A stretch of DNA of 47,078 nt from an uncultured Pelagibacteraceae bacterium (lineage in GTDB: Bacteria; Pseudomonadota; Alphaproteobacteria; Pelagibacterales; Pelagibacteraceae). Where the stretch lies: positions 1 through 47,078 of the forward strand of contig CACJOS010000010.1 of assembly GCA_902595115.1 (NCBI GenBank), in the 5' to 3' direction. Under the pieces are notes generated by a model. It saw only the letters and a program-made list of their open reading frames with translations. It did not search any database and was not told the origin of the DNA. Every line of letters starts with the position of its first letter. The first letter of the stretch is position 1. Position numbers and translations under genes: made by a program. Of the stretch, positions 19,738-21,775 are shown piece after piece.

Positions 19738-19944
19738 ATGAAAAAAATACTATTAGCTATAACTTTAATTATATTTTCAACCTCTGCTTTCGCTGGCTCA
19801 TGTCCGATGTTAAGTGGAAAAGTGAAAACTAAAATTGAAAAAGCTCAAAAACTTCATGATGCTGGTATGAAAGCACATTCTGATGGAGATCATTCAAAAT
19901 CAGAACAACTTTTAAATGAAGCACTTGATCTATTTAAAAGTTAA
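19738..19944 (+). CDS. Small secreted helical protein
   Basis: A 68-residue product with a clear Sec signal peptide: MKKILLAITLIIFSTSAFAG, cleavage expected after AFA (residue 19). The mature part of about 49 residues begins GSCPML, with a single cysteine, and continues as two helices with a TPR-like pattern (KLHDAGMKAHSDGDHSKSEQLLNEALDLFK). The start is supported by AAAGG eight bases upstream. No family name is recognised; TPR-like binding in the periplasm is a guess. It ends 14 bp before the left 29-bp repeat. Confidence 0.65.
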   Translation: MKKILLAITLIIFSTSAFAGSCPMLSGKVKTKIEKAQKLHDAGMKAHSDGDHSKSEQLLNEALDLFKS

Positions 19945-19958
19945 TTAATTTGGGGTTA

Positions 19959-19987
19959 GGGGCACCTGGCAACAGAACGCCCCTACT
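19959..19987 (+). repeat. Left copy of a 29-bp perfect direct repeat
   Basis: Identical over 29 bp to 21599-21627. It begins GGGGCACCTGG and ends GCCCCTACT, so the arms GGGGC (19959-19963) and GCCCC (19979-19983) can form a 5-bp stem around a 15-base loop. Weaker similarity (10 of 12 bases) continues to the right in both copies. It is GC-rich against its surroundings. It marks the left edge of a 1640-bp unit with one gene. Confidence 0.9.
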
Positions 19988-20051
19988 CATTTGTTAATTT
20001 AGTTTGCAGTACCAACGTTATTTAAAAAATACAACCTTGTGAGTCGTCCTG

Positions 20052-20063
20052 TGGTCGGCATTT
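20052..20063 (+). repeat. Inner 12-bp repeat, left copy
   Basis: TGGTCGGCATTT occurs here, three bases from the stop codon of the restriction-like gene, and again at 21510-21521 on the other side of that gene, where an overlapping third copy (TGGTCGGCATT, 21521-21531) follows. Together with the outer 29-bp repeats this gives a nested direct-repeat frame around the gene. Confidence 0.6.
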
Positions 20064-20066
20064 TAA

Positions 20067-21437
20067 TTAATTTATCCAATTAATATTCTTATTTAATTTA
20101 TTGTAGGTTTTTACTTTTTTATTATGAATCCAACACAATGTAATATTAAGATCCTCCATTAGATCTAACAAATAACTATATTTATTCATCAATTTCATCG
20201 GATCACTACTTAGAGCAAGATACATTTCTACTCTCTCAGGTAATATTTTTTCGTTTTGATATCTTATTTTATATTCTAACAGTTTTATTATTCCATTTCT
20301 TATTTGTTCTTTTAAATTTTGACTTTTCCAAGTTTTAATTTCAAAGAGTTTTCCAATACCATTCAGTTCAGTATATAGATCAAATTGTGCCCCTTTGTGC
20401 TGTAAATTCTTTTCTTTTAATTTTTTAGCAATAATTTTTACAGTTTCTTCATGTTGCATAGTAGCTTTTTCTAATAATTCTAATTTACTTTGATTTTTTT
20501 TCTCTAGATTTAAACCACCTTTAGGTTTCCATTTTTTTGCAACTTTATTTATATCAATATCGCTTAATTTTATTGGTGCTGGATTATTAAATATTTCTTT
20601 TGGTATCTCTTTTTTAAAATATTTAGTTTTTTCATTCGCAACAAAGTTCTCTTCTCTAACTAATTTAAAGTTACAAATTTTAAAACCATCTACACCTTGA
20701 GAATACCAGAAATCATTGATTAGATATTTACCATCATATCTATAACCATTCTTAGGTGCATAATCAGAATTTAAATTACTACCTCTAAAAACCCTTACTG
20801 GTATGTTCCAATTGCAATTAAATACTAAAGATTTATTAAATGTATTTTCAAATGATTGGTTTGATGTTTGTTTACCTGTTTTTTCATCCCTTCCGCCCTG
20901 ACCAATATAAATTACTTCTTCTCCTCGGTCATAGGTTTCATCAACGTAACCTCCAGATAACACAACTGCCTTTGCTACCCCTTGAATTTGAGATATTCCA
21001 AATACAGTATTATTATGTAGCCCTGCCTTAAGAATTTCTTTCCTATCTTTAAATACTTTACCTTCTTTATGTTCTTCAACTTTTTTAAAATTTGAAACGT
21101 TTAGTTTATCTAAATCTATGTCTTTATAAATAATTGGATTTCTTTCTTTACCCCAAAATTCTGGGATTGAAATTTCTGCATATTCTCTAAATCTAATTTT
21201 ATATCTGCCTGGTCCAAAAGGTGACTTTATAATTTCTTTTATTTTTCCAATTAAAAAAGCCTCTCTATGCTTCTCTTTGCCATGCCAAATTTTTCTTGTA
21301 TCGTGTCTGTTCCTTGTGCAGATAACATATTTACATTTTGATGCTTTTATAGGATTTAATTTCCAAGACTCTGAAGTTTCTTTGAGCACAATCTCATCAA
21401 TGCTTTTGTAGGTAAGTACAACAATTGTGTTTGGCAT
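20067..21437 (-). CDS. Predicted modification-dependent restriction endonuclease: N-terminal PUA-like region, SRA/YDG domain, PD-(D/E)XK nuclease
   Basis: 456 residues in three parts. Residues 1-120 are beta-rich and unassigned (AFLIGKIKEI and GRYKIRFREYAEI resemble EVE/ASCH-type PUA-like folds). Residues about 138-263 form an SRA/YDG domain like that of eukaryotic UHRF1: GVAKAVVLSGGY, GEEVIYIGQGGRD, PVRVFRG, the YDG signature in RYDGKYLI (233-240), and GFKICNFKLVRE. Residues about 325-445 carry a nuclease pattern: Glu330 in HEETV, Asp353 in QFDLY, Glu366-x-Lys368 in FEIK, and QIRNGIIKLLEY with Gln378. SRA domains flip out 5-methyl- or hydroxymethyl-cytosine, so cutting of cytosine-modified (phage) DNA is inferred. 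No methyltransferase lies near, which fits a stand-alone type IV enzyme. The gene sits alone between direct repeats among housekeeping genes, suggesting acquisition. Length 456 and domain order differ from MspJI and PvuRts1I as I know them. Confidence 0.82.
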   Translation of the reverse strand: MPNTIVVLTYKSIDEIVLKETSESWKLNPIKASKCKYVICTRNRHDTRKIWHGKEKHREAFLIGKIKEIIKSPFGPGRYKIRFREYAEISIPEFWGKERNPIIYKDIDLDKLNVSNFKKVEEHKEGKVFKDRKEILKAGLHNNTVFGISQIQGVAKAVVLSGGYVDETYDRGEEVIYIGQGGRDEKTGKQTSNQSFENTFNKSLVFNCNWNIPVRVFRGSNLNSDYAPKNGYRYDGKYLINDFWYSQGVDGFKICNFKLVREENFVANEKTKYFKKEIPKEIFNNPAPIKLSDIDINKVAKKWKPKGGLNLEKKNQSKLELLEKATMQHEETVKIIAKKLKEKNLQHKGAQFDLYTELNGIGKLFEIKTWKSQNLKEQIRNGIIKLLEYKIRYQNEKILPERVEMYLALSSDPMKLMNKYSYLLDLMEDLNITLCWIHNKKVKTYNKLNKNINWIN

Positions 21438-21459
21438 AGATATTAATATTTTAAAAGTT

Positions 21460-21490
21460 CTTCATGATCCAAGGCTATCAAATCATGAAG
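21460..21490. promoter_or_regulatory. Inverted repeat upstream of the SRA-nuclease gene
   Basis: CTTCATGAT (21460-21468) and ATCATGAAG (21482-21490) are a perfect 9-bp inverted repeat with a 13-base spacer, 22 bp upstream of the gene's ATG at 21437. It could be an operator for a regulator or an mRNA 5' hairpin. No regulator gene is visible next to it. Confidence 0.5.
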
Positions 21491-21497
21491 CCTGTGA

Positions 21498-21531
21498 CGA
21501 CCAGATTTTTGGTCGGCATTTGGTCGGCATT
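21498..21531. repeat. Hairpin plus tandem TGGTCGGCATT repeats
   Basis: CGACCA (21498-21503) and TGGTCG (21510-21515) form a 6-bp stem; the second arm belongs to TGGTCGGCATTT (21510-21521), which is repeated with one base overlap at 21521-21531. The same 12-mer lies at 20052-20063. Short repeated arms of this kind are seen at recombinase core sites, but no recombinase gene is present, so the role is open. Confidence 0.5.
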
Positions 21532-21598
21532 ATTCTATAATTTGTGTGATTTGATTATTGCTGATTGTTGCAATATAAGGATTATTGAAACAAAGTTC

Positions 21599-21627
21599 GG
21601 GGCACCTGGCAACAGAACGCCCCTACT
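21599..21627 (+). repeat. Right copy of the 29-bp perfect direct repeat
   Basis: Same 29 bases as 19959-19987. This copy contains the stop codon (CTA on the plus strand, 21623-21625) of the small minus-strand gene 21623-21775, so it lies in that gene's 3' end. The distance between copies is 1640 bp. This copy is probably the ancestral one, belonging to the 3' region of the small gene, with the island inserted beside it; that order is inferred. Confidence 0.9.
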
Positions 21628-21775
21628 TATTTATTTTGTGTTTAATTTTACTTATTAAGAAAATAGCTATTGCACTAACTGCAGCAAATACCTCAAGTGC
21701 GTGACCAGAATCACCCAGTATCATTTGAACAATATAAAATATAATACAAACAACAAACCAAACTAGAATTAGCAT
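21623..21775 (-). CDS. Small hydrophobic membrane protein, 50 residues
   Basis: Read from ATG at 21775 to TAG at 21623. The product starts MLILVWFVVCIIFYIVQMIL, a membrane segment, followed by a short polar turn (GDSGHALE) and a second hydrophobic segment (VFAAVSAIAIFLI) with a basic tail ending in KHKINK. It would be a two-helix hairpin in the inner membrane. It lies 3 bp downstream of the tautomerase gene on the same strand and so could be the last gene of the fabA-fabB-fabI-tautomerase transcript. No family recognised. Confidence 0.55.
   Translation of the reverse strand: MLILVWFVVCIIFYIVQMILGDSGHALEVFAAVSAIAIFLISKIKHKINK

What the first reader, a model, noticed from the sequence alone, without database searches (positions are those of the whole stretch)
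20067..21437. Stand-alone SRA-nuclease: a candidate type IV (modification-dependent) restriction enzyme with unusual architecture
Seen: a UHRF1-like SRA/YDG domain in the middle (RYDGKYLI, GGRD and GEE blocks) and a C-terminal nuclease pattern Glu330, Asp353, Glu366-x-Lys368, Gln378, plus a 120-residue N-terminal beta-rich region without assignment. Known: SRA domains read 5mC/5hmC; MspJI has SRA first and nuclease last, PvuRts1I the reverse. Inference: three-part (PUA-like)-SRA-PDEXK enzyme that cuts cytosine-modified phage DNA in a lineage known for very few defence genes. No methyltransferase is next to it. This is the strongest candidate for an undescribed system here.
Basis: partly seen in the sequence, partly recalled or inferred. 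Interest (0 to 1): 0.86.

Follow-up and report, generated by a model that had tools for sequence, protein, structure and literature searches.

The report
Ocean bacterium's cassette-borne modified-DNA cutter
A marine bacterium of the Pelagibacter (SAR11) family carries, between two copies of the end of its tmRNA gene, a gene whose protein has an SRA domain (the kind that reads methylated cytosine), a second predicted reader and a predicted DNA-cutting domain; it likely destroys incoming phage DNA with modified cytosines, and the small DNA cassette that holds it probably moves between genomes.

Summary

Unexpected: the gene lies in a 1640-bp cassette without recombinase, between two 41-bp copies of the tmRNA 3' end; a relative has the empty site with one copy. 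All 4 SRA loci found lie in such cassettes, at tmRNA or tRNA-Thr ends. In 13 of 26 cassettes a cassette-specific motif pair, exactly 11 bp apart, stands at both ends (23 of 650 mismatched end pairs; no other spacing from 7 to 16 bp: 0). The enzyme is a new variant of a known kind; the cassette family is the more novel part.

The parts
20067..21437 (-). Gene for the three-part protein, 456 aa
   Evidence: 11 full-length database homologs, 62-99% identity; dN/dS 0.016/0.191 against L102
21087..21437 (-). N-terminal domain, residues 1-117, predicted PUA-like (YTH/ASCH/EVE-type) second reader
20649..21086 (-). SRA domain, residues 118-263
20070..20462 (-). Predicted PD-(D/E)XK nuclease domain, residues 326-456 (D353, E366, K368, Q378)
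19955..19995 (+). Left copy of the tmRNA 3' end (att-like repeat)
   Evidence: the third exact copy of its core in the genome is inside a called tmRNA (L007)
21595..21635 (+). Right copy of the tmRNA 3' end (att-like repeat)
   Evidence: a single copy stands in the empty site of G026
20043..20062 (+). Left motif pair, units 11 bp apart (GTCGTC at 20043, GTCGGC at 20054)
   Evidence: (D9)
21512..21531 (+). Right motif pair, units 11 bp apart (GTCGGC at 21512 and 21523)
   Evidence: (D9)

Best explanation
The gene at 20067-21437 encodes a protein with an SRA domain between a predicted PUA-like domain and a predicted PD-(D/E)XK nuclease, and it most likely works as a single-chain type IV restriction enzyme that would cut incoming DNA carrying modified cytosines. 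Inferred mechanism: the SRA domain flips a modified cytosine into its pocket; the N-terminal domain reads a second base or helps to hold the DNA; engagement positions the C-terminal nuclease, probably as a dimer, to cut nearby. Host DNA would be spared because it lacks cytosine-5 methylation. Shown: the SRA domain, the conserved nuclease residues, purifying selection, the absence of a C5-methylase match in the held genome, and the position inside a cassette bounded by tmRNA 3' ends. Predicted: the folds of the first and last domains. Inferred: binding, cutting, phage as the target, and movement of the cassette by a recombinase acting in trans.
Against: No binding or cutting was measured. No PADLOC or NCBIfam model matches. 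The SRA pocket departs from the others: E167 in place of D, an inserted residue and I178 in place of T in 12 of 12 members, so the usual target may have been lost. The N-terminal domain occurs alone on plasmids and in jumbo phages, which says nothing for a role in restriction, and its fold scores are at the level where chance arrangements occur. The residues 272-325 linker has pLDDT under 50.
Confidence: 0.72

Rival explanations
1. The enzyme is modification-dependent but its target is a base other than 5mC or 5hmC (a bulkier cytosine adduct or another hypermodified base), because the pocket was remodelled.
For: E167, one inserted residue and I178 are fixed in 12 of 12 family members, against D, no insertion and T in 15 of 15 other SRA proteins of the alignment. 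In UHRF1 the equivalent positions (D469, T479) contact the flipped base (recalled, not looked up).
Against: The aromatic residues that sandwich the base (Y164, Y177) and the rest of the SRA core are kept; other SRA domains were reported with 5mC and 5hmC.
Confidence: 0.3
2. The enzyme is a weapon between mobile elements: it attacks 5mC put on by the C5 restriction-modification systems that carry the same nuclease module, rather than phage DNA.
For: The same nuclease module lies beside C5 methyltransferases in 9 of 9 loci without SRA, and in 399 genomes no genome had both forms. The gene rides on a cassette.
Against: Only 2 full-length SRA forms and 9 nuclease-only forms were seen among 399 genomes, so absence of co-occurrence means little. 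The altered pocket does not point to plain 5mC.
Confidence: 0.15
3. The protein binds modified DNA but does not cut it in the cell: a reader that regulates, or a decayed nuclease.
For: No activity data; its N-terminal domain exists as a free-standing protein without a nuclease.
Against: Active-site residues are invariant in 9 of 9 and dN/dS of the nuclease segment is 0.076 against L102.
Confidence: 0.08

Closest known systems
TagI (SRA-HNH type IV restriction enzyme)
   Different: TagI ends in an HNH nuclease; here a predicted PD-(D/E)XK domain; TagI has no N-terminal PUA-like domain; pocket signature differs
MspJI
   Different: The superposition over both domains is poor (rmsd 17-19 A); no sequence match; MspJI lacks the extra N-terminal domain (recalled)
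ScoMcrA (SBD-SRA-HNH)
VcaM4I (EVE-HNH) and PD-T4-3/CMoRE (GIY-YIG with a modification-sensing domain)
   Different: One reader, no SRA, other nucleases
MTaX1-type restriction genes beside C5 methyltransferases in the same genus
   Same: Same C-terminal nuclease module, with D353, E366, K368 and Q378 conserved
   Different: N-terminal MTaX1 domain in 2 of 3 scanned in place of PUA-like plus SRA; a cognate methyltransferase is present
CIMEs and additive flexible genomic islands (for the cassette)
   Same: Stretches between att-type repeats, without recombinase (CIMEs, PMC7563491, passages); islands with recurring last 20 nt of tRNA-Lys in Methylopumilus (PMC10872708, passages)
   Different: Here mostly one or a few genes, repeats of the tmRNA or tRNA-Thr 3' end, and a cassette-specific motif pair 11 bp apart at both ends
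Tycheposons
   Same: Elements at tRNA ends in streamlined marine bacteria (described in PMC10872708, passages)
   Different: Those are 4-200 kb and carry a tyrosine recombinase; no Phage_integrase match lay in these cassettes

Membership tests
Type IV (modification-dependent) restriction enzymes of the SRA kind | SRA-type modification reader | tested here: met
   [not shown]
Type IV (modification-dependent) restriction enzymes of the SRA kind | Nuclease domain in the same chain | tested here: met
   [not shown]
Type IV (modification-dependent) restriction enzymes of the SRA kind | No accompanying DNA methyltransferase | tested here: met
   None seen among window ORFs (by eye); no C5-methylase match in the 72%-complete genome; other methylase families not searched
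Type IV (modification-dependent) restriction enzymes of the SRA kind | Cleavage that depends on a modified base | not testable with these tools
   Needs an assay
MspJI family | SRA-type reader before PD-(D/E)XK nuclease, with recognisable sequence or fold kinship of the whole chain | tested here: inconclusive
   [not shown]
SRA-HNH family (TagI) | C-terminal HNH nuclease | tested here: not met
   No HNH family match; C-terminal fold matches PD-(D/E)XK entries
MTaX1/C5-methyltransferase restriction-modification | MTaX1 domain and adjacent C5 methyltransferase | tested here: not met
   No MTaX1 in the window protein; no C5 methylase
CIME | att-type repeats on both sides and no recombinase | tested here: met
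   Repeats; single gene; the one Phage_integrase match of the genome is on another contig
CIME | Derived from an ICE or IME; can be mobilised in cis | not tested
   No search for conjugation genes was made
Tycheposon | Carries a tyrosine recombinase | tested here: not met

The most novel reading that the evidence does not exclude
The enzyme is one cargo of an undescribed family of minimal mobile cassettes in Pelagibacter: one or a few genes between copies of the tmRNA or tRNA-Thr 3' end, without a recombinase, each with its own motif pair 11 bp apart at fixed distances from both ends that would serve as the address for a recombinase acting in trans. Cargo genes pass from one cassette frame to another, and the system would supply SAR11 bacteria, said to have almost no defence genes, with single-gene phage defences including a two-reader restriction enzyme of a new architecture.
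Probability: 0.5. Interest if true: 0.82.

Novelty: new variant of a known kind. Interest (0 to 1): 0.68.

Why it matters
A DefenseFinder survey found anti-phage systems in 19 of 172 Ca. P. ubique genomes, all of them restriction-modification, and in 0 of 14 bloom MAGs (PMC11066056, passages seen). A type IV enzyme here would be a defence that such catalogues miss (PADLOC: no match). It also shows one nuclease family used both with a cytosine methyltransferase and with a reader of modified cytosine, which makes the switch from 'cut unless modified' to 'cut if modified' open to study. The remodelled pocket, fixed in the family, gives a testable prediction of unusual base specificity. The cassettes, with a strict 11-bp motif-pair rule at both ends, may explain how streamlined ocean bacteria trade single genes.

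Tried and rejected
Considered and dropped: Rieske_2 as the N-terminal domain (Pfam E 0.11, under cut-off). The 41-bp repeat as a terminator, riboswitch or transposon end: Rfam finds only a tRNA in the window, and the third copy in the genome is the 3' end of a called tmRNA. A phage origin of the cassette ends: an exact 27-mer of a right end has 0 matches in viral contigs; a 21-mer of the core has 8, and in 8 of 8 it lies in a phage-borne tmRNA. Relatives in viral contigs: none confirmed for the whole protein or for residues 1-118. First structure model (12 sequences) left the SRA domain at pLDDT near 30; the second, with 15 more SRA proteins, gave 73.5 on average. A search by residues 1-118 found only whole-length homologs because candidates are limited by length; PHROGs and tblastn found the short ones.

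Against tidy readings: AG-345-F21 holds the gene in a 3-gene stretch whose right repeat has 4 mismatches to the 25-bp core and whose two ends carry different motif pairs (read by eye). 13 of 26 cassettes do not have the coupled 11-bp pairs, among them all three segments of L054. 12 of 26 share no 8-mer between ends. The motif-pair test chose 6-mers from the same ends; its control is the mismatched end pairs (23 of 650), some of which come from cassettes that share a motif.

An absence from print is claimed only for the held library: searches. The main tycheposon paper was not among the listings.

Full report

The nuclease residues.

The family. A search of 5.8 billion proteins gave 41 hits: 11 full-length homologs at 62-99% identity with the same order, the rest matching by SRA or nuclease alone; most full-length ones come from ENA metagenome sources. 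Two named single-cell genomes carry it: AG-345-F21 (96% over the whole length) and AG-325-E08 (65%). dN/dS between the window and AG-345-F21 is 0.016/0.191 = 0.08, and under 0.13 in each of four segments. A search of 399 genomes of the genus gave 12 matches: 2 full-length genes (the window and G341, whose contig has the length of the AG-325-E08 contig), 1 SRA-HNH protein (G235) and 9 that match by the nuclease only. A separate Pfam SRA search of 151 genomes found only the window's.

One nuclease, two partners. In 9 of 9 nuclease-only loci a C5 methyltransferase gene is adjacent (G059, G022, G359, G267, G434, G424, G025, G205, G304). Two of three of these proteins that I scanned carry MTaX1, 'methylase-associated X1', at the N-terminus. 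So the module serves with a methyltransferase in one setting and with a modification reader in the other; which came first was not tested.

The pocket. Aligned with 15 other SRA proteins, 12 of 12 family members have E167 where the others have D, one extra residue (169), and I178 where the others have T; Y164 and Y177 are common to all 27. From memory of the UHRF1 structures, D469 and T479 contact the flipped base. The change is fixed in the family and suggests an altered target; this is inference.

The cassette. The gene is bounded by 41-bp direct repeats, 93% identical, 1640 bp apart. Their 25-bp core occurs three times in the genome, the third time (C11) inside a tmRNA called by ARAGORN; in AG-345-F21 Rfam alpha_tmRNA covers the same 3' end. 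Genome G026 has the same neighbours (pnp, a small ORF, then the gene upstream of fabI) with no SRA gene and one copy of the repeat. In AG-345-F21 the gene lies just downstream of the tmRNA gene itself, in a three-gene stretch ended by a repeat copy with 4 mismatches; DNA similarity to the window covers only the gene (window 20061-21449, 95.5%) and the repeat. In G341 the gene and a DUF6994 gene lie between exact 51-bp copies of the tRNA-Thr 3' end. In G235 an SRA-HNH gene lies between 59-bp copies (97%) of the same tRNA end. That is 4 of 4 SRA loci found.

Other cassettes. The core (up to 2 mismatches) occurs in 166 of 201 genus genomes, in all 29 of the 29 that are at least 90% complete; by my hand count 73 of 201 have two or more copies; the reversed control pattern shows 0 in the rows listed. 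From 20 loci that I fetched because copies lay close together, 19 give 23 stretches of 0.3-4.6 kb between copies; the window adds one. Of their 48 ORFs of 60 aa or more (besides the window's) I scanned 13 with Pfam: two GIY-YIG proteins, an MrcB_N protein with a sub-threshold HNH match next to a BRCT protein, a DUF4268 protein, two trypsin-like proteins, one DUF6994 protein and others with no or weak family. The DUF4268 protein is PADLOC's phage-defence candidate PDC-S11 (E 2e-123).

The ends. With two tRNA-Thr cassettes added, 14 of 26 share a GC-containing 8-mer between their own left and right ends, against 60 of 650 mismatched end pairs; 0 of 2000 permutations reach the observed sum. In 13 of 26 the shared motif stands as a pair exactly 11 bp apart at both ends, roughly 45-75 bp from the left and 59-85 bp from the right repeat; mismatched pairs give 23 of 650, and every other spacing from 7 to 16 bp gives 0 of 26 and 0 of 650. 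The motif differs between cassettes while the repeat stays the same. The arrangement resembles arm-type sites of tyrosine recombinases (recalled); what reads it is unknown. None of the Phage_integrase matches listed for cassette genomes lies on the cassette contig (G000, G019, G025, G105, G132, G134, G135, G144, G149, G168, G178, G197, G231); G130 and G219 have no match. Most genomes show one match of about 310-325 aa, which I take for the host Xer enzyme.

Host. No C5-methylase match in the window's genome (72% complete), AG-345-F21 or G235; a truncated 149-aa frame in G341; 7 of 7 restriction-modification genomes tested had matches, as expected from how they were chosen. A marine methylome study reports the adenine motif GANTC for Pelagibacter (PMC9516812, passages). 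This fits a host that would not cut itself.

Conclusion. The best reading is a type IV restriction enzyme of a new layout (PUA-like, SRA, PD-(D/E)XK) carried by small cassettes. The enzyme's mechanism is inferred from anatomy and kin; the cassette anatomy is shown by sequence; its mobility is inferred from different sites, different frames around a nearly identical gene, and an empty site.

Noticed in passing
L050-L069 and window 19955-21635: Pelagibacter cassettes between tmRNA 3'-end copies with cassette-specific motif pairs exactly 11 bp apart at both ends; the reader of the motif is unknown.
   Followed up: partly
L089:472-2164: A different SRA gene (SRA-HNH, 375 aa) in a cassette at the same tRNA-Thr as the G341 SRA gene.
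   Followed up: partly
L114:1076-1609, L115:4476-5003, L116:4986-5495, L117:2193-2702, L118:4977-5480: Free-standing relatives of the N-terminal domain, 167-177 aa, function unknown, on small plasmids and in a jumbo phage.
   Followed up: partly
L058:2168-3124: Cassette cargo matching the phage-defence candidate PDC-S11 (E 2e-123), beside a 474-aa protein without family.
   Followed up: no
L063:1851-3089: Cassette with an MrcB_N protein (sub-threshold HNH match) next to a BRCT protein, possibly another modified-DNA enzyme.
   Followed up: no
L055:2779-3483 and L088:5998-6543: DUF6994 genes in both a tmRNA cassette and the tRNA-Thr SRA cassette.
   Followed up: no
window 19738-19944: 68-aa putative secreted protein just left of the left repeat; its relative is the cargo of a 343-bp cassette in G019 (L053), so the left flank may be the rest of an older cassette.
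   Followed up: partly
[not shown]
   Followed up: no
P0012, P0013: Database proteins in which part of this family is fused to parts of unrelated enzymes on short contigs; probably assembly chimeras.
   Followed up: no
L104-L111: Eight viral contigs carry a tmRNA gene with the same 3' end as the SAR11 repeat.
   Followed up: no
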